DNA of 49,855 nt from Actinomycetospora sp. (GTDB lineage: Bacteria; Actinomycetota; Actinomycetes; Mycobacteriales; Pseudonocardiaceae). The notes below the pieces were generated by a model, which worked only from the letters and a program-made list of their open reading frames with translations, was not told where the DNA came from and ran no database searches. Positions 2,287 through 8,389 of this stretch are shown here, one piece after another (within the stretch, counting starts at the first letter, position 1; each line of letters opens with the position of its first letter). The position numbers and the translations under genes are program-made. The DNA lies in assembly GCA_029266415.1 (NCBI GenBank), contig JAQSWW010000001.1:1-49855 (forward strand), in the 5' to 3' direction.

Positions 2287-2445
2287 CGCGGCGCAGTGTT
2301 CCCGAGGCCGTCGATCTTCGCCACCGCCGGCCGTCGACGCGGGCGTGAACGGCCGGTGCTCGTGCCAGCGTGGCGGCCACGCTGGCGTTGAACGTCAGGA
2401 AAGCCCCCATCTCGCGCCTCGCCCGCTCCCCGTAGCGTGTCCTCC

Positions 2446-3711
2446 GTGCGCGTCCTGGTGATCGGTTCCGGTGCCCGCGAGCACGCCCTGCTGCTCGCTC
2501 TGGCCGGCGACCCGCAGGTCACCGCCCTCGCCGCCGCCCCCGGCAACGCGGGCACCGCCGCGCTGGCCGAGCACCCGGGCCTCGCCGACGCAGGAGACCC
2601 CGAGCTCGTCGTGGCCCTGGCCCGCCGCTGGCGCGCGGACCTCGTCGTCGTCGGTCCCGAGGCGCCGCTCGTGGCGGGGGTGGGCGACGCGCTGCGCGCC
2701 GCCGGGATCGCCTGCTTCGGCCCGAGCGCCGCCGCGGCGCGCATCGAGGGCTCCAAGGCGTTCGCGAAGGACGTCATGGCGGCGGCCGGCGTGCCCACCG
2801 CGCGCAGCGAGGCCGTCCACGACGCCGTCGAGCTCGACGCCGCGCTCGCCCGCTTCGACCCGCCCTACGTGGTCAAGGACGACGGCCTGGCCGCGGGCAA
2901 GGGCGTCCTCGTCACCGAGGACCTCGAGGCCGCCCGCGACCACGCCGCCGCGGTGCTCGGGGCCGGGCACCCGGTGCTCCTCGAGTCGTTCCTCGACGGC
3001 CCGGAGGCCTCGCTGTTCTGCGTCGTCGACGGCACCACGGTCGTCCCGCTCGTCCCCGCCCAGGACTTCAAGCGCCTCGGCGACGACGACGCCGGCCCCA
3101 ACACCGGCGGCATGGGTGCCTACGCCCCGCTGCCGTGGGCGCCCGAGGGCCTCGTGGACGAGGTCGTCGACCGGATCATCGCTCCGGTCGTCGCCGAGCT
3201 CGCCGCCCGCGGCACCCCGTTCTCGGGCCTGCTCTACGCCGGCCTCGCGCTGACCTCCTCGGGCCCGCAGGTGATCGAGTTCAACTGCCGCTTCGGTGAC
3301 CCCGAGACCCAGCCCGTCCTCGCGCTCCTGCGCAGCTCGGCGGCCTCACTGCTCGCCGCGGCCGCGGCCGGGCGTCTCGCCGAGGAGCCGCCACCGACCT
3401 GGGCGTCGGGCGCCGCCGTGACCGTCGTCGTCGCGGCCGAGGGCTACCCGGGCTCCGTGCGCACCGGCGACGTGCTGCGCGGCGCCGACGGCCACGGCGT
3501 CCTGCACGCGGGCACGCGGCGACGCGACGACGGGGCCGTGGTATCGAGCGGCGGGCGGGTGCTGTCGGTCGTCGGGACCGGCGACGACCTCGAGGCCGCT
3601 CGCCGCGACGCCTACGAACGCCTCGCCACCGTGCACCTCCCGGGCGGGCAGTACCGCACCGACATCGCGCGGGACGCCGCCGCCGGCCGGGTCGCCGTGC
3701 CGGTGCTCTGA
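2446..3711 (+). CDS. purD: Phosphoribosylamine-glycine ligase (GAR synthetase)
   Basis: PurD joins phosphoribosylamine and glycine with ATP, the second step of de novo purine synthesis. The 421-residue protein has the N-terminal sequence [18 protein letters not shown], the ATP-grasp segment [13 protein letters not shown], a PNTGGMGAY loop and the metal/ATP site [16 protein letters not shown] start it at GTG 2446, not the in-frame GTG 2437. The family begins MRVLVIGSG, and TAGCGT (2433-2438) with a 7-nt spacer would place the transcript 5' end exactly at 2446. GTG 2437 falls inside that -10 hexamer. It is monocistronic here. Confidence 0.97.
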
Positions 3712-3766
3712 CCGGATCTCACGGAACGGCCCCACGCGGGCGAGGCGCCGACCTACCCTCGCGCCC

Positions 3767-4063
3767 ATGCCCGACCTCGACCTCGCCCCGGCGGCCCTCG
3801 AGCAGGCCCGCACGGGCGTCGCCGCCGAGGCGCGGAGGCTGCCCGCGATGATCGACCAGGTCGTCGCCCCCCGCGGTGGCCTCGGCGACCTGACGTCCGC
3901 CGGTGCGATGCTCGGCGCGCTCGACCAGGTGGTCCGGGCCCTCGACGCCGAGCTCGGTGCCGCGGGCTCGTGTCTCGACGGGCTCGACCGCGCCCTCGAC
4001 GCCGCCCTCACCGCCGTCCGCTCGGGCGACGGGAACGCCGCCACCGCGCTCACCGCGGCCTGA
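3767..4063 (+). CDS. Small helical ESX/EspC-like protein, cassette copy 1
   Basis: A 98-residue all-helical protein with no signal peptide or membrane segment. It resembles small type VII secretion-associated proteins of the EspC/WXG100 superfamily in length and heptad-like Ala/Leu pattern but has no WXG motif. It aligns along its whole length with the 101-residue protein at 5930-6235 (shared pattern DLDL...ALE.AR..VA.EA.R.P and LD..ERALDAA-like end). Leaderless start: TACCCT (3754-3759), 7-nt spacer, ATG. Four bases separate its stop from the WXG/transglycosylase gene, so the two are likely co-translated. I infer a partner or chaperone role; the sequence does not prove it. Confidence 0.7.
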   Translation: MPDLDLAPAALEQARTGVAAEARRLPAMIDQVVAPRGGLGDLTSAGAMLGALDQVVRALDAELGAAGSCLDGLDRALDAALTAVRSGDGNAATALTAA

Positions 4064-4067
4064 CCCC

Positions 4068-5870
4068 GTGGTGGCCTTCGACGCCGTCGGCGAGCTCGCG
4101 GCGCAGCCCGGTGGGCAGGAGCTCAGCGCGCTCGCCGACCGGGTACAGCGCATCGACCCCGAGGTCCTGCGCGCCGTCGGTCGCGGGCTCGGGGCGATGG
4201 CCGAGGGCGTCGACGGCTCGCTGGCCGCGGTGGGCCGCCACGGCGAGGCCGTGCGCGCCGGCTGGGGTGGTCGGGGCGCCGAGGCGTTCGCCGAGCACGT
4301 CGGCGACCTCGGCCGGGCGGGTCGCACCACGCTGGAGGCGACCGGCCGGATGCGCGAGCGCGTCGACGGCGCGGGGCAGGTGCTCGACGGGCTGCGTCGC
4401 GAGGTCGACGGGCACGTCACGCGGGCCCTCGACGCCGCCCGCCGCGCCCGCGCCGAGGCCCTCGCCGACCCCGCCCGCGCCCCGCTGGCCGACCAGCTCG
4501 CGGCCCGGGCCATGGCCGAGCCCACCGCCGCGGCCCGCGCCGCCCTCACCCGTGCCGAGACGGACCTCGGCGACACCGCGACCGTGCTGCAGGAGCTCGC
4601 CGCCGACACCCGCGCCATCTCCCGCCTGCCCACCCCCGACGTCCGCGCGATCGGCGCCTCCGGCTGGACCCCGGCGCCCACCGGCGAGTCGATCGCCACC
4701 GCCCCGACGCTGTTCGAGGGCTCCGGTTCCGGTGCCGGCGGGTCCGACCGTGGGGTGCAGGGCATCGACCTCTCCGACGGCACCGGCTCCTCGTCCGGGT
4801 CCTCCTCGGCGGCGGACGTCACCGATGGTGCGGACAGCACCTCCGACCTCGCGGACGCCGGGTCGACGAGTGCTGACGCCGGGAGCGGGAGCGGTGTGGA
4901 CGACTGCTCCGACGCCGGGACCGGTGCTGGAGATGCTTCGGTTTCCGAAGCATCTGGCGGCGGCGGATCGGGTGCGCCGGGCGCGGGAGCGTCGGCGGGC
5001 GGTGCCGCGGACGTGGGCGATGGCTCGGGTGCCGGGGATGCTTCGGTTTCCGAAGCATCCGGGGGCGGGGCCGAGCCGGGGTCGGCGACCGCCGCCGCGC
5101 CGGACGAGACCGGTGCGGCCGAGGGCACGGCCGGCAACGATGTGTCCCCCGGCGACCGGGAGGACGGCTCGGGGGACACCGGAAACGGCGCGGACCCGGC
5201 CGCCGCGGACGACGCCGACGCGGGGGACGACGACTATGCCGGTGAGACGGCCGTCGGCGCCGAGGACGACGACGCTGGAGCCGGCACGAATGCCGATGCC
5301 CAGGACGACGACGCCGCAGCTGACGTCGAGGACGACGACACCGCCGATGACGCGGACGCCGGCGCTGAGGACGACGAGGCTGCAGCCAGCACGAGTCCCG
5401 GCGCCGACGAGGGCACGGATGCCGCTCAGGGCGACGACGCCGAGGCCGAAGACACCGACGCCGAGAAGGACCCCGACGCCTCGGGCGACGCCGCGCCGAC
5501 GGGCGGGCCGCAGGGTCAGGTCGGCGACTGGATCCGCGAGGCGATGGCGGTGCTGCAGGCCGAGGGCGTGCCCGTGGACAAGATGGACCCGGACGACATC
5601 GCGACGATCATCGAGCACGAGTCGGGCGGCGACCCCGAGGCCACCAACGACTGGGACTCGAACGCCGCGAAGGGCACGCCGTCGCAGGGGCTGATGCAGA
5701 CGATCGGGCCGACGTTCGACTCCTACAAGCTCGACGGCCACGAGGAGATCAAGGACCCGGTCGACAACATCATCGCCGGCGTCCGCTACGCCATCGACCG
5801 CTACGGCTCGGTGTCGCAGGTGCCCGGCGTCGAGGCCGTCGCGCGCGGCGACGCGTACGTCGGCTACTGA
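4068..5870 (+). CDS. WXG100-like domain / acidic linker / SLT lytic transglycosylase
   Basis: A 600-residue protein in three parts. Residues about 1-190 are helical, with a WXG-type turn at Trp66 (AGWGGRGAEAFAEH). Residues about 200-480 are a low-complexity Ser/Gly then Asp/Glu/Ala linker. Residues about 483-600 are an SLT-type lytic transglycosylase domain (catalytic Glu518 in IIEHESGGDP, then GLMQTIGPTF and GVRYAIDRYGS). It should cleave peptidoglycan glycan strands. There is no Sec signal, so export through a WXG/type VII route is inferred. GTG 4068 or 4071 is the start; the frame is open further upstream but overlaps the preceding gene. Two identical palindromes (4932-4954, 5037-5059) sit in frame in the linker and each encode DASVSEAS. 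A shorter paralogue is at 6240-7175. Confidence 0.85.
   Translation: MVAFDAVGELAAQPGGQELSALADRVQRIDPEVLRAVGRGLGAMAEGVDGSLAAVGRHGEAVRAGWGGRGAEAFAEHVGDLGRAGRTTLEATGRMRERVDGAGQVLDGLRREVDGHVTRALDAARRARAEALADPARAPLADQLAARAMAEPTAAARAALTRAETDLGDTATVLQELAADTRAISRLPTPDVRAIGASGWTPAPTGESIATAPTLFEGSGSGAGGSDRGVQGIDLSDGTGSSSGSSSAADVTDGADSTSDLADAGSTSADAGSGSGVDDCSDAGTGAGDASVSEASGGGGSGAPGAGASAGGAADVGDGSGAGDASVSEASGGGAEPGSATAAAPDETGAAEGTAGNDVSPGDREDGSGDTGNGADPAAADDADAGDDDYAGETAVGAEDDDAGAGTNADAQDDDAAADVEDDDTADDADAGAEDDEAAASTSPGADEGTDAAQGDDAEAEDTDAEKDPDASGDAAPTGGPQGQVGDWIREAMAVLQAEGVPVDKMDPDDIATIIEHESGGDPEATNDWDSNAAKGTPSQGLMQTIGPTFDSYKLDGHEEIKDPVDNIIAGVRYAIDRYGSVSQVPGVEAVARGDAYVGY
4932..4954. repeat. Perfect palindrome, copy 1, inside the linker-coding region
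   Basis: A 23-bp element with 10-bp arms (GATGCTTCGG and its exact complement) around a TTT centre. It is identical to the copy at 5037-5059. Both lie in the same reading frame and encode DASVSEAS. It resembles a mobile or REP-type palindrome captured in a permissive disordered linker. Confidence 0.9.
5037..5059. repeat. Perfect palindrome, copy 2, inside the linker-coding region
   Basis: Second exact copy of the 10-3-10 palindrome at 4932-4954, 105 bp (35 codons) downstream. The flanking bases are also similar (GGAGATG.../GGGGATG... on the left, CATCTGG/CATCCGG on the right). Confidence 0.9.
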
Positions 5871-5929
5871 CGCGGCGGGTTGTCCCGAACCGCACCCACG
5901 GCCGCCGACCGCCACCTACCGTCGATCCC

Positions 5930-6235
5930 GTGGCCGACATCGACCTGGAGCTCGACGCCCTCGAGGAGGCGCGCGCGGCCGTGGCGGGAGAGGCCGGCCG
6001 GGTGCCGGGGCTGGGCGACCGGCTCGGGTCGGCGCCCGCTCCGGACCTGGGCACGCTGGACGCCGCGCCCGCCGTCGCCGACGCGATCACGGCGCTGACG
6101 CGCGCGGTCGTCGCCGACCTCGAGGCCGCGGGCCGGCGCCTCGACGAGGCCGAGCGGGCGCTCGACGCGGCGATCCGGCGGGTCCAGCAGGCGGACGCAG
6201 CGGGCGCCGCGGTGCTGGCGTCGGCCGGGGGCTGA
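5930..6235 (+). CDS. Small helical ESX/EspC-like protein, cassette copy 2
   Basis: A 101-residue helical protein, full-length paralogue of the protein at 3767-4063 (MADIDLELDALEEARAAVA against MPDLDLAPAALEQARTGVA). No cysteine, signal peptide or membrane segment. Leaderless start: TACCGT (5917-5922), 7-nt spacer, GTG. Its stop is followed by four bases and the GTG of the second WXG/transglycosylase gene, exactly as in copy 1. The gene pair was therefore duplicated as a unit with its promoter. Function is inferred only from the cassette context. Confidence 0.7.
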   Translation: MADIDLELDALEEARAAVAGEAGRVPGLGDRLGSAPAPDLGTLDAAPAVADAITALTRAVVADLEAAGRRLDEAERALDAAIRRVQQADAAGAAVLASAGG

Positions 6236-6239
6236 GCCC

Positions 6240-7175
6240 GTGTCCACCGACCACGGGCTGGCGGGCGAGCCCGCGGCGGCCGAGCTCGTGGCCCTCGCCG
6301 CCCGCGTCCGGACGGCCGACCCGGGCGCGGTGCGGGCGTCGGCCGAGGAGGTGCGGGCGGTCGGCGACGGCCTCGGGCACGCGGCCGGCGCCGTCGACCG
6401 GGGCGTGACCGCCGTCGGCAAGCGCTGGCGCGGTCGGGGCGCTGATGCGTTCGCCGACTGGACCCGCGCCTTCGGGACGGCGGGCGACCGCGACCGACAG
6501 GTCCTCGTCGAGGCCGGCGCCGCACTCGCGCAGGTGGGGGCGGTGCTCGACGACCTGCGCAGCGAGGTCGACCACCAGGTGGCCCGGGCCCTCGACCTGC
6601 TCGCCGCCGCCCGTGCCCGGCCGGACACGCCGCCCGAGCTCGCCGACAGCCTGGCCCGCGACGCCCTACGCGCGCCCACGGAGGCGGCACGGGCGGCGGT
6701 CGCGCTCGCCGAGACCGACCTGCGCGCGACGGCAGCGAGGATCCGTGATCTCGCCGACGACCTCACCGCCTACGCCGAGCTCCCGGCGCCCGGCCGCCAC
6801 GGACGGCAGAGCCGCACCGGCCAGGTCGGCGACTGGATCCACCAGGCGGTCGCGATCCTGAAGGACGCCGGGGTGCCGCCGGAGCAGATGGACCCGCAGG
6901 CCATCGCCCTGATCATCGAGCGCGAGTCCGGCGGCGACCCGGACGCGGTCAACGACGACGACGTCAACGCCGCGCGGGGCACGCCGTCGCGGGGGCTCAT
7001 GCAGACGATCGGCCCGACCTTCGAGGCCCACAAGCTGCCGGGCCACGACGACATCCGCGACCCGGTGGACAACATCATCGCCGGCGTCCGCTACGCGATC
7101 GCCCGCTACGGCTCGGTCTCGCGGGTGCCCGGCGTGCTCGCCGTGGCCCGCGGCGACCCGTACGTCGGCTACTGA
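6240..7175 (+). CDS. WXG100-like / SLT lytic transglycosylase, short-linker paralogue
   Basis: A 311-residue protein with the same domain order as 4068-5870 but with a linker of only about a dozen residues. Trp63 marks the WXG turn (KRWRGRGADAFADW). The helical part runs to about residue 185, and the SLT domain follows with catalytic Glu229 (IIERESGGDP), GLMQTIGPTF and GVRYAIARYGS, ending PYVGY like its paralogue. No Sec signal or membrane segment. The close match of the ends, with an almost absent middle, shows that the copies differ chiefly by linker growth or loss. Peptidoglycan cleavage is a family inference; the secretion route is not shown. Confidence 0.85.
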   Translation: MSTDHGLAGEPAAAELVALAARVRTADPGAVRASAEEVRAVGDGLGHAAGAVDRGVTAVGKRWRGRGADAFADWTRAFGTAGDRDRQVLVEAGAALAQVGAVLDDLRSEVDHQVARALDLLAAARARPDTPPELADSLARDALRAPTEAARAAVALAETDLRATAARIRDLADDLTAYAELPAPGRHGRQSRTGQVGDWIHQAVAILKDAGVPPEQMDPQAIALIIERESGGDPDAVNDDDVNAARGTPSRGLMQTIGPTFEAHKLPGHDDIRDPVDNIIAGVRYAIARYGSVSRVPGVLAVARGDPYVGY

Positions 7176-7195
7176 GCCCGACCTAGGGTGTGCCG

Positions 7196-8389
7196 GTGAC
7201 GACTCTGGCGCGCCTCGGTCCGGCGGTGCGGGCGATGGTCCCCCCGTTCCACGTGATGGACGTGTGGGCGGCCGCCGGGGAACGGGCACGCACCCACGGC
7301 GACCTGGTCAACCTCTCGGCGGGCCAGCCCTCGACGCCCGCGCCGGCCGACGTGCGCGCGGCCGCCCGGCGCGCCCTCGACGAGCAGATCCTGGGGTACT
7401 CGAGCTCGCTCGGGACCCTCGAGCTGCGCGGGGAGATCGCCGCGCACCACCGCGCCCGCTACGGCGACGACACCGTGCGCGCCGAGGACGTCGTGGTCAC
7501 CACCGGCGGCTCCGGCGGGTTCCTGCTCGCGTTCCTCGCCGCGTTCGACGCGGGCGACACCGTGGTGCTCGCCCGTCCCGGCTACCCCTGCTACCGCAAC
7601 ATCCTCGCGGCGCTGGGGTGCGAGGTCGTCGAGCTGCCGTGCGGGGAGGAGACACGCTTCCAGCCGACGGTCGCCATGCTCGAGGCGCTGGACCGCCCGC
7701 CGAAGGGCCTCGTCGTCGCGAGCCCCGCCAACCCGACCGGCAGCGTCATCGAACCCGGCGAGCTGGCCGCCCTCGCGCGCTGGTGCGAGGAGCACGGCGT
7801 CCAGCTGATCAGCGACGAGATCTACCACGGCATCGAGTACGGGGGCGCCCCGGCGACCGCGAGCGCGTGGAGCACCTCCCACGAGGCCATCGTCGTCACG
7901 TCGTTCTCGAAGTACTGGTCGATGACCGGCTGGCGGCTGGGCTGGCTGCTCGTGCCCGAGCGGCTGCGCCGGGCCGTCGACGTCATCGCGGGCAACTTCA
8001 CGGTCTGCCCGCCGGTGCCCGCGCAGTACGCCGCGCTCGGGGCGTTCACCGAGGCCTCGGTCGCCGAGGCCGACGGTCACGTCGGGCGCTACGCCCTCAA
8101 CCGGCGGCTGCTGCTCGACGGCCTCCCGCGCCTCGGGCTGACACGGCTCGCCCCGGCCGACGGCGCGTTCTACGTCTACGCCGACGTCGCGCACCTCACC
8201 GACGACACGCTGGCCTTCGGGCAGCGGATCCTCGCCGAGACCGGCGTCGCGGTCGCCCCGGGCATCGACTTCGACCCCGTCGACGGCCACACCTGGATCC
8301 GCCTGTCGTTCGCCGGGGCGACGGCCGACATCCGCGAGGCCCTCGACCGCCTCGGACACTGGCTGCCGCGCGGCGGTGGCCCGCTCTAA
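7196..8389 (+). CDS. Class I/II PLP-dependent aminotransferase
   Basis: A 397-residue fold-type I aminotransferase. Diagnostic segments are NLSAGQPSTPAP near the N-terminus, the ASPANPTGSVI loop, SDEIYHGIEY, and the PLP lysine Lys239 in SFSKYWSMTGWRLGW. The amino-donor specificity cannot be read from sequence; aspartate/alanine-type and valine-type enzymes look similar. I start at GTG 7196 because TAGGGT (7184-7189) with a 6-nt spacer points to it; an in-frame GTG at 7190 is the alternative. Its TAA stop (8387-8389) forms the first half of the -10 hexamer TAAGGT of the channel gene. Confidence 0.9.
   Translation: MTTLARLGPAVRAMVPPFHVMDVWAAAGERARTHGDLVNLSAGQPSTPAPADVRAAARRALDEQILGYSSSLGTLELRGEIAAHHRARYGDDTVRAEDVVVTTGGSGGFLLAFLAAFDAGDTVVLARPGYPCYRNILAALGCEVVELPCGEETRFQPTVAMLEALDRPPKGLVVASPANPTGSVIEPGELAALARWCEEHGVQLISDEIYHGIEYGGAPATASAWSTSHEAIVVTSFSKYWSMTGWRLGWLLVPERLRRAVDVIAGNFTVCPPVPAQYAALGAFTEASVAEADGHVGRYALNRRLLLDGLPRLGLTRLAPADGAFYVYADVAHLTDDTLAFGQRILAETGVAVAPGIDFDPVDGHTWIRLSFAGATADIREALDRLGHWLPRGGGPL

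What the first reader, a model, noticed from the sequence alone, without database searches (positions are those of the whole stretch)
3754..7175. Tandem-duplicated cassette: small ESX-like protein plus WXG/transglycosylase fusion, each with its own leaderless promoter
Seen: two gene pairs with the same order, the same 4-nt intergenic gap, the same TACCNT-7 nt-start promoter, and homologous proteins in both positions. They differ mainly in a roughly 280-residue acidic linker present in copy 1 and nearly absent in copy 2. Known: SLT domains cut peptidoglycan and WXG proteins travel by type VII secretion. Inferred: a secreted wall-remodelling pair whose linker length has diversified. No type VII core genes are in the window and I know no description of such a cassette inside a purine island.
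Basis: partly seen in the sequence, partly recalled or inferred. Interest (0 to 1): 0.7.

Follow-up and report, generated by a model that had tools for sequence, protein, structure and literature searches.

The report
Paired type VII wall-cutting enzyme
Two side-by-side gene pairs in a soil actinobacterium each appear to encode a cell-wall-cutting enzyme that carries a docking domain for the type VII secretion machine, plus a small partner protein predicted to pack against that domain; in related bacteria the same pair sits inside the secretion machine's own gene cluster.

Summary
In detail: window 3754-7175 holds two pairs (small protein + WXG domain-linker-SLT transglycosylase), each with TACCNT 7 nt before the start and a 4-nt gap. 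The genome is Actinomycetospora-like. All 18 genomes of the genus match; 8 have two pairs, 8 one, one has a broken single pair, one is cut by a contig end. EccB and EccC are over cut-off in 18 of 18. The duplication is old. Of 80 named related loci, 36 are at the purine address (mostly Pseudonocardiaceae), 25 beside EccB/C/D (Streptosporangiales). A WXG-only search gave the same trio (small, WXG, SLT) in 19 of 19 fetched loci outside the genus. Read-through models of two orthologous pairs match EspB (fused PE-PPE) at Z 19.0 and 17.6, next unrelated 12.3 and 11.2. The extended export pattern fits 24 of 24 small proteins of the genus, but none has its tyrosine. Best reading: a lytic transglycosylase exported by type VII secretion as a split EspB-like heterodimer, perhaps to open the wall for the machine. 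Export and activity are untested. Unexpected: a dispersed 23-bp palindrome lies in the acidic linkers, 22 of 22 copies in frame.

The parts
3754..3759 (+). TACCCT, -10-like element of a leaderless promoter, 7 nt before ATG 3767
   Evidence: sequence; TANNNT at 6-7 nt in 24 of 24 small genes of the genus against 14 of 1244 control triplets
3767..4063 (+). small partner 1 (98 aa), PE-like helical hairpin by inference; end motif VRSGDGNAATAL
   Evidence: fold inferred from orthologous models
4068..4637 (+). copy 1 WXG / PPE-like domain (W66-x-G68), N-terminal part of the 600-aa protein
4638..5513 (+). copy 1 acidic Ser/Gly/Ala/Asp linker (about 290 aa)
   Evidence: boundaries approximate
4932..4954 (.). 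dispersed palindrome GATGCTTCGG-TTT-CCGAAGCATC, read in frame as DASVSEAS
5037..5059 (.). second copy of the palindrome, 105 nt on, same frame
5514..5870 (+). copy 1 SLT lytic-transglycosylase domain (ESGGDP, GLMQ, C-terminal YVGY) and stop
5917..5922 (+). TACCGT, -10-like element, 7 nt before GTG 5930
5930..6235 (+). small partner 2 (101 aa), PE-like by inference; end motif VQQADAAGAAVL
6240..6788 (+). copy 2 WXG / PPE-like domain (W63-x-G65)
6819..7175 (+). copy 2 SLT domain with almost no linker before it, and stop
2437..3711 (+). purD, left side of the conserved address (context)
   Evidence: synteny in the genus and beyond; gene name recalled from similarity
7190..8389 (+). aminotransferase gene, right side of the conserved address (context)
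   Evidence: gene name recalled from similarity

Best explanation
Each pair encodes one export unit of an ESX/T7SSa machine. The small protein is a PE-like helical hairpin; the start of the large protein is a PPE-like WXG domain; the two pack into one helical bundle of the EspB kind, which the EccC ATPase (encoded elsewhere in the genome) would recognise through the conserved end of the small protein. The bundle carries, on a flexible linker, a lytic transglycosylase (SLT) as cargo, which would cut peptidoglycan glycan strands once outside. Because the pair is encoded inside the ecc cluster in Streptosporangiales and at a fixed chromosomal address in Pseudonocardiaceae, the likeliest role is a standing one: opening or remodelling the wall for the machine itself or at sites where it works. 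In the two-copy clade an old duplication gave a long-linker and a short-linker version, each with its own leaderless promoter. Shown: genes, conservation, synteny, ecc linkage in relatives, predicted fold of orthologous pairs. Inferred: export, catalysis, role.
For: Pair conserved in the genus. EccB 18 of 18 and EccC (TIGR03925) 18 of 18 over cut-off, the 14 control genomes reaching the cut-off in none. Found from the WXG domain alone, 19 of 19 fetched loci outside the genus (the best-ranked of a 200-genome family search) carry the SLT domain in the same frame and the small partner beside it (E 2e-33 to 4e-18). 25 of 80 named loci have EccB/C/D within 6 kb; in L189 EccB, EccC, EccD pass NCBIfam cut-offs, in L183 EccB and EccD pass Pfam and the EccC-like protein has three FtsK/SpoIIIE stretches, in L182 EccB passes; the small gene follows the eccC-like gene on the same strand in L183 and L189. 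In a class sample all 6 genomes with a strong WXG-domain match (E<1e-30, own genome included) have EccB, which 92 of 246 have. Small partners of the genus and of 24 outside loci: hhalign probability 98.7%, E 2.3e-16, 100 columns. Read-through model of the A. chibensis copy-2 ortholog: pLDDT 87.3, pTM 0.62; EspB 6xzc Z 19.0, rmsd 3.4, 241 of 242 residues, model 5-302; the first 11 rows (ten entitled EspB, plus 4wj2 'Mycobacterial protein') at Z 15.9-19.0, next a ferritin at 12.3. Model of an ecc-linked Nonomuraea pair: EspB Z 17.6, 240 of 242, next a ferritin at 11.2. SLT part against Slt70: Z 9.1 and 8.8. Hydrophobic-xxx-D/E...hydrophobic end pattern 24 of 24 in the genus, the pattern that PMC3935865 gives for EspB, EspC and PE25 (passages). 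No strongly hydrophobic N-terminus: largest 15-residue Kyte-Doolittle mean in the first 60 aa 1.28 (large) and 1.19 (small) for the window (no signal-peptide predictor was run).
Against: The tyrosine of the classical YxxxD/E signal is absent in 48 of 48 small proteins examined, and outside the genus only 13 of 24 keep hydrophobic-xxx-D/E. In Pseudonocardiaceae the pair is not within 6 kb of ecc genes, so the link there rests on ancestry and co-presence. The fold models are single chains made by reading a stop codon as Gly, which forces the parts to be neighbours; no PAE, no unfused or mismatched control. Foldseek gives no match at E<=0.001 (best 6e-3 and 1.5e-3), and the aligner's note says that five helical models without a clear match had a typical best Z of 14, so 17.6-19 is above that by a modest step. 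The window's own pairs were not folded (4-nt gap, out of frame). The SLT match covers about positions 11-83 of 117 of the Pfam profile. At the looser limit (E<=1e-8) 7 of 27 genomes with a WXG-domain match lack EccB; six of the seven matches lie in frames of plain WXG100 length, one (G410) in a long frame that I did not look at. Five of the 24 outside partners (L116, L120, L121, L125, L131) are only 15-23% identical to the first row of their alignment and may not be homologous.
Confidence: 0.75

Rival explanations
1. Antibacterial effector: a type VII toxin of the polymorphic kind, whose SLT domain attacks the wall of competitors, the linker being varied for delivery.
For: N-terminal WXG/LXG export domains with C-terminal toxin domains are a known toxin layout (PMC3482391 seen only in the listing; otherwise recalled); tandem copies and variable linkers occur.
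Against: The cargo does not vary: SLT in 24 of 24 copies of the genus and in 19 of 19 outside loci found from the WXG domain alone; no room for an immunity gene between the copies (59 nt) or between copy 2 and the aminotransferase gene (14 nt); the address is fixed in the genus and shared beyond it. An immunity gene elsewhere was not searched for.
Confidence: 0.1
2. Growth or sporulation autolysin: the enzyme remodels the producer's own wall in septation or branching, type VII secretion being only its way out; no role in opening the wall for the machine.
For: Stable chromosomal address next to housekeeping genes in Pseudonocardiaceae; conserved promoter; purifying selection.
Against: Location inside ecc clusters in Streptosporangiales fits a machine-dedicated enzyme better.
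Confidence: 0.35
3. The helical bundle is a cytoplasmic or surface scaffold and the pair leaves the cell by another route, or not at all; the EspB likeness is an old relic.
For: No Tyr in the signal position, 0 of 48; pair not near ecc genes in Pseudonocardiaceae.
Against: No strongly hydrophobic N-terminus; EccB and EccC present in 18 of 18; W-x-G and the ES and GLMQ motifs kept in 24 of 24.
Confidence: 0.1

Closest known systems
EspB (ESX-1 substrate with fused PE and PPE domains)
   Same: Predicted bundle of small protein + WXG domain matches EspB over 241 of 242 residues, Z 19.0; W-x-G in the PPE-like part; end motif at the PE-like hairpin in the place of EspB's YGEVDEEAATAL (EspB motif from PMC3935865, passages).
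   Different: Split into two genes; Tyr of YxxxD replaced by V, M or I; carries an SLT enzyme; 10-14% identity in the structural alignments; not from mycobacteria.
PE/PPE pairs such as PE25-PPE41
   Same: Small gene directly upstream of the large one; the WXG part alone matches PPE41 (2g38_B) at Z 10.2.
   Different: I saw no PE or PPE sequence motif (by eye); enzymatic C-terminus; chaperone dependence unknown.
EssH, the wall hydrolase of the S. aureus T7SSb
   Same: Wall hydrolase encoded with a type VII cluster (PMC13059805, passages).
   Different: EssH is a CHAP-domain, non-lytic hydrolase of the other machine type (T7SSb); no WXG fusion is mentioned in the passages that I saw.
EtgA and other secretion-linked lytic transglycosylases of Gram-negatives
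   Same: Lytic transglycosylase that serves a secretion machine (PMC13059805, passages).
   Different: Other secretion systems; here the enzyme is fused to a type VII export domain.

Membership tests
WXG100 superfamily / type VII secretion target | W-x-G between two helices | tested here: met
   W-x-G in 24 of 24 large proteins of the genus and 27 of 28 outside (L121 the exception); Pfam WXG100 over cut-off for copy 2 (28.6 bits), under it for copy 1 (25.9 against 27.3)
WXG100 superfamily / type VII secretion target | classical YxxxD/E export motif | tested here: not met
   Tyr 0 of 24 in the genus and 0 of 24 outside, at the aligned position of the small proteins
WXG100 superfamily / type VII secretion target | extended pattern HxxxD/ExxhxxxH (H hydrophobic) | tested here: met
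   positions 1, 5 and 12 fit in 24 of 24 in the genus (the less conserved h at position 8 was not scored); outside, 13 of 24 keep positions 1 and 5, 8 of 24 all three
EspB / PE-PPE fold | PE hairpin packed on PPE helical domain | tested here: met
   predicted only, on orthologs: Z 19.0 and 17.6 in two read-through models
EspB / PE-PPE fold | EspG- or EspK-type chaperone binding | not tested
   no search made
SLT lytic transglycosylases (PF01464) | family profile and ES / GLMQ motifs | tested here: met
   E 3.5e-10 and 9.2e-12 over cut-off; ESGGDP and GLMQ 24 of 24; that these are the catalytic motifs is recalled
SLT lytic transglycosylases (PF01464) | full-length catalytic domain | tested here: inconclusive
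   profile positions 11-83 of 117 only; model matches Slt70 over 86 residues at Z 9.1
Type VII machine component or substrate by context | encoded with eccB/eccC/eccD | tested here: met
   in relatives, 25 of 80 loci by tblastn, confirmed in L182, L183, L189; not in the window
Polymorphic toxin | variable C-terminal toxin domain on a common export domain | tested here: not met
   SLT in 24 of 24 of the genus and 19 of 19 fetched outside loci found by WXG domain; weaker matches were not read
Polymorphic toxin | cognate immunity gene | tested here: inconclusive
   none beside the pairs; elsewhere not searched
Type VII substrate | EccC-dependent export | not testable with these tools
   needs a mutant and secretome

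The most novel reading that the evidence does not exclude
Actinobacterial type VII (T7SSa) machines outside mycobacteria have their own dedicated wall-opening enzyme, a lytic transglycosylase that exports itself through the machine as a split EspB-like heterodimer; it is encoded inside the ecc cluster in Streptosporangiales and at the purD address in Pseudonocardiaceae, and in Actinomycetospora its tether grew as a dispersed palindrome spread in frame through the linker.
Probability: 0.38. Interest if true: 0.8.

Novelty: new variant of a known kind. Interest (0 to 1): 0.63.

Why it matters
How type VII substrates and the machine pass the peptidoglycan in Actinobacteria is, as far as I know, open; in the passages that I saw, the EssH paper names for T7SSa only two NlpC/P60 hydrolases tied to a plasmid-borne cluster of mycobacteria (PMC13059805). 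A transglycosylase that carries the export fold itself and is encoded in the ecc cluster would give a direct, testable answer in harmless laboratory actinomycetes, and would show that an EspB-like PE-PPE unit serves as a cargo carrier beyond mycobacteria. The in-frame palindromes are a separate, checkable case of a repeat element in a protein linker.

Tried and rejected
phmmer of copy 2 against PDB sequences: 0 hits at E<=0.01. Pfam scans of the 24 small proteins of the genus: no family with support; outside the genus weak WXG100 in 5 of 24 (best E 0.016) and EspC in 1 of 24 (E 0.018). Paper searches for a description; no title or abstract start in the listings describes this pair, and Actinomycetospora + type VII secretion gave 0 papers; the library lacks most subscription journals, and the papers listed were not read beyond passages of two. 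The family-wide WXG search (123 of 200 genomes at E<=1e-5) is not used as a count of true pairs, since the limit admits plain WXG proteins. RAYT-type transposase as mover of the palindrome: PF01797 in 0 of 18 genomes, while the control found it in 5 of 14. Nonomuraea gerenzanensis record: no annotation at the match. Plasmid and phage searches: in plasmids 1 of 101 records covers at least 80% of the query (a Nonomuraea record of 11.9 Mb filed as plasmid), in phages 0 of 574; the listed rows otherwise hit little more than the SLT part, mostly in tape-measure proteins. My first SLT queries were cut out of frame and gave noise; redone. My composition-based gene caller called several linkers intergenic, so the frame count uses the gene coordinates. 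Outside partners: I read 45 of the 80 loci; 3 were set aside for lack of a start (L094, L107, L130), 2 had no upstream frame (L093, L128), 12 were dropped because the script took a wrong upstream frame or the large protein lacked the WXG part (L071, L080, L082, L086, L088, L090, L092, L096, L106, L110, L114, L118), 28 were kept (L104 with a wrong start, 23 aa), and 24 of these were aligned as A4.
Full report
What is there. The window (49,855 bases) is contig 157 of a 4.73 Mb draft genome in 306 contigs, 84.5% complete. Copy against copy: small proteins 45%, WXG domains 46%, SLT domains 74% identical; linkers about 297 and 8 residues.

Conservation in the genus. A search with the copy-2 protein hits 18 of 18 genomes. 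I fetched the regions of the other 17. purA, purD, the pair once or twice and the aminotransferase gene are found in that order in 16 of these 17; G014 is cut by the contig end and shows the end of a large gene and, of the named neighbours on that side, the aminotransferase, channel-like and aldolase genes. The GDPD-like gene was not detected in L036 and L048, the channel-like gene not in L036, L040, L044, L045, the aldolase not in L040, L044, L045 (gene names recalled from similarity). Eight genomes have two full pairs (G000, G001, G003, G004, G007, G008, G015, G016), eight have one (G002, G005, G006, G009, G010, G011, G013, G017), and G012 has one pair whose large gene changes frame in the linker. 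The 24 intact pairs were used from here on; G012 and G014 were left out. Linker lengths: long-linker copy 249-484 aa (8), short-linker copy 8-82 (8), single copy 100-210 (8). In the WXG tree the three kinds form three groups (SH-aLRT 91, 100, 99) and the same four species pairs recur in both duplicated copies, so the duplication is older than those eight species; the small-protein tree puts the long-linker and single copies together (99) with the short-linker copies outside; the SLT tree does not hold the single copies together. Whether single-copy species lost the second copy or never had it is not settled; the program warns of long branches.

Promoters. All 24 small genes have TANNNT 6 or 7 nt before the start codon; 0 of 24 large genes have one at 6-8 nt; the control rate is 14 of 1244. 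No transcript was measured.

Relatives elsewhere. By flanking genes within 6 kb (less at contig ends), 36 have purD and/or the aminotransferase gene (14 Actinomycetospora; 22 others: Amycolatopsis, Prauserella, Crossiella, Streptoalloteichus, Sciscionella, Pseudonocardia and others, one an unclassified MAG), 25 have EccB, EccC or EccD (Nonomuraea, Microbispora, Streptosporangium, Sphaerisporangium and kin), none has both, and 19 have neither (10 myxobacterial and 4 Nocardia loci, 5 others) (grouping by me from the rows, family names recalled). In L183 and L189 the eccC-like gene lies directly upstream of the small gene on the same strand (gaps of about 130 and 70 nt); NCBIfam confirms EccB, EccC and EccD in L189, Pfam confirms EccB and EccD in L183 and shows three FtsK/SpoIIIE stretches in its EccC-like protein, and NCBIfam confirms EccB beside the pair in L182. 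Upstream partners aligned from 24 outside loci (A4) match the genus's small proteins at hhalign probability 98.7%, E 2.3e-16; five of the 24 are divergent (15-23% to the first row).

A check free of the SLT bias. The 80 loci were found through SLT peptides. The family search used the WXG domain alone; of its fetched loci, the 19 outside the genus (L143-L161, the best-ranked) all have the SLT domain in the same frame (E 1e-47 or better) and a small-partner match on the same strand (E 2e-33 to 4e-18). So the trio, not just the SLT domain, is the conserved unit. Weaker matches were not read.

Type VII presence. EccB and EccC are over cut-off in 18 of 18 genomes of the genus. In a class sample of 246, EccB is in 92; the six genomes with a strong WXG-domain match (E<1e-30, own genome included) all have it. 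Of all 27 genomes with a match at E<=1e-8, 20 have EccB and 7 do not (G220, G264, G275, G338, G347, G410, G432); six of those seven matches lie in frames of 90-126 aa, the length of a plain WXG100 protein, one (G410) in a frame of 1482 aa that I did not look at.

Fold. In some loci the two genes are in frame, so reading the stop as Gly gives a natural-order single chain. The A. chibensis copy-2 pair (432 aa, 52-row alignment) gave mean pLDDT 87.3 and pTM 0.62, with a two-helix hairpin in the small part and three long helices in the WXG domain. The first 11 rows of the structural comparison are EspB (ten by title, plus 4wj2 'Mycobacterial protein'), Z 15.9-19.0; best 6xzc: 241 of 242 residues, rmsd 3.4, model 5-302; the next chain, a ferritin, is at 12.3; PPE41 matches the WXG part alone at 10.2 and Slt70 the SLT part at 9.1. 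Foldseek also ranks EspB first, without any match at E<=0.001. A second model from an ecc-linked Nonomuraea pair (L112, 473 aa; pLDDT 86.7, pTM 0.69) gave EspB Z 17.6 (240 of 242, rmsd 3.6) against 11.2 for the next unrelated chain. Both models join the parts by a short bridge, which favours contact; the bridge does not by itself explain that EspB, and not another bundle, leads by more than 6 Z units over the next fold. The aligner's note that helical models can reach about Z 14 without a clear match tempers this.

Export motif. PMC3935865 (passages read) gives HxxxD/ExxhxxxH as an extension of YxxxD/E and lists EspB YGEVDEEAATAL. At the end of the second helix the window has VRSGDGNAATAL and VQQADAAGAAVL. 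Positions 1, 5 and 12 fit in 24 of 24, Tyr in none; outside the genus 13 of 24 keep hydrophobic-xxx-D/E, and several forms have N or H at the acidic position. So the place is kept and the classical letters are not.

Linker and palindrome. Copy 1's linker holds GATGCTTCGGTTTCCGAAGCATC twice. With up to one mismatch the palindrome occurs 11 times in this genome, 7 in G001, 19 in G003, 3 in G007, 11 in G012, 14 in G016 and 0 in 12 others, while the pattern read backwards gives 0 in all 18. With up to three mismatches the linkers of seven of the eight long-linker copies hold 22 copies, 22 of 22 in one frame (DASxSEAS in intact copies), nine of them in G016 with spacings of 87-114 nt, all multiples of three; at the same looseness the whole window has only the two, and 100 shuffles none. 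Of 29 copies in 20 sampled regions elsewhere, a crude gene caller puts 23 between genes and 6 in genes; it also called some linkers intergenic, so this is a rough count. Flanks show no strong common sequence, though clustered copies share some. Copies within one linker are not independent, and the mover is unknown; no Y1 transposase was found in the genus.

Reading. The simplest account is a type VII-exported lytic transglycosylase with a split EspB-like carrier (0.75). Its role, wall opening for the machine or ordinary wall remodelling, is open; ecc linkage favours the first. In the passages that I saw the EssH paper names no transglycosylase for T7SSa. I found no description of this pair in the searches listed under Tried and rejected.

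Noticed in passing
window 4932-4954 and 5037-5059; G016 C7:59513-60369 (L050): A dispersed 23-bp palindrome (11 copies at up to one mismatch in this genome, 0 for the reversed control) sits in the acidic linkers, 22 of 22 copies in one reading frame. Mover unknown.
   Followed up: partly
L067, L077, L078, L083, L084, L085, L087, L095, L101, L105: Myxobacterial loci (Corallococcus, Archangium, Citreicoccus) encode an SLT domain 64-70% identical to copy 2's, with no EccB/C/D found in the flanks; perhaps transfer between phyla.
   Followed up: no
L046 (G012), about 5501-7503: One pair only, close to the long-linker copy (65-90% identity to copy 1), whose large gene changes frame inside the linker; real break or assembly error not known.
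   Followed up: no
L004 (G000:C5:24239-25015): A further SLT protein of the same genome, 37% identical, in an open frame whose N-terminal part has a hydrophobic stretch and no WXG domain that I could see.
   Followed up: no
phage and plasmid records: The same short SLT type (about 45% of the query in the best phage rows) recurs in phage tail tape-measure proteins of Gram-positive phages.
   Followed up: no
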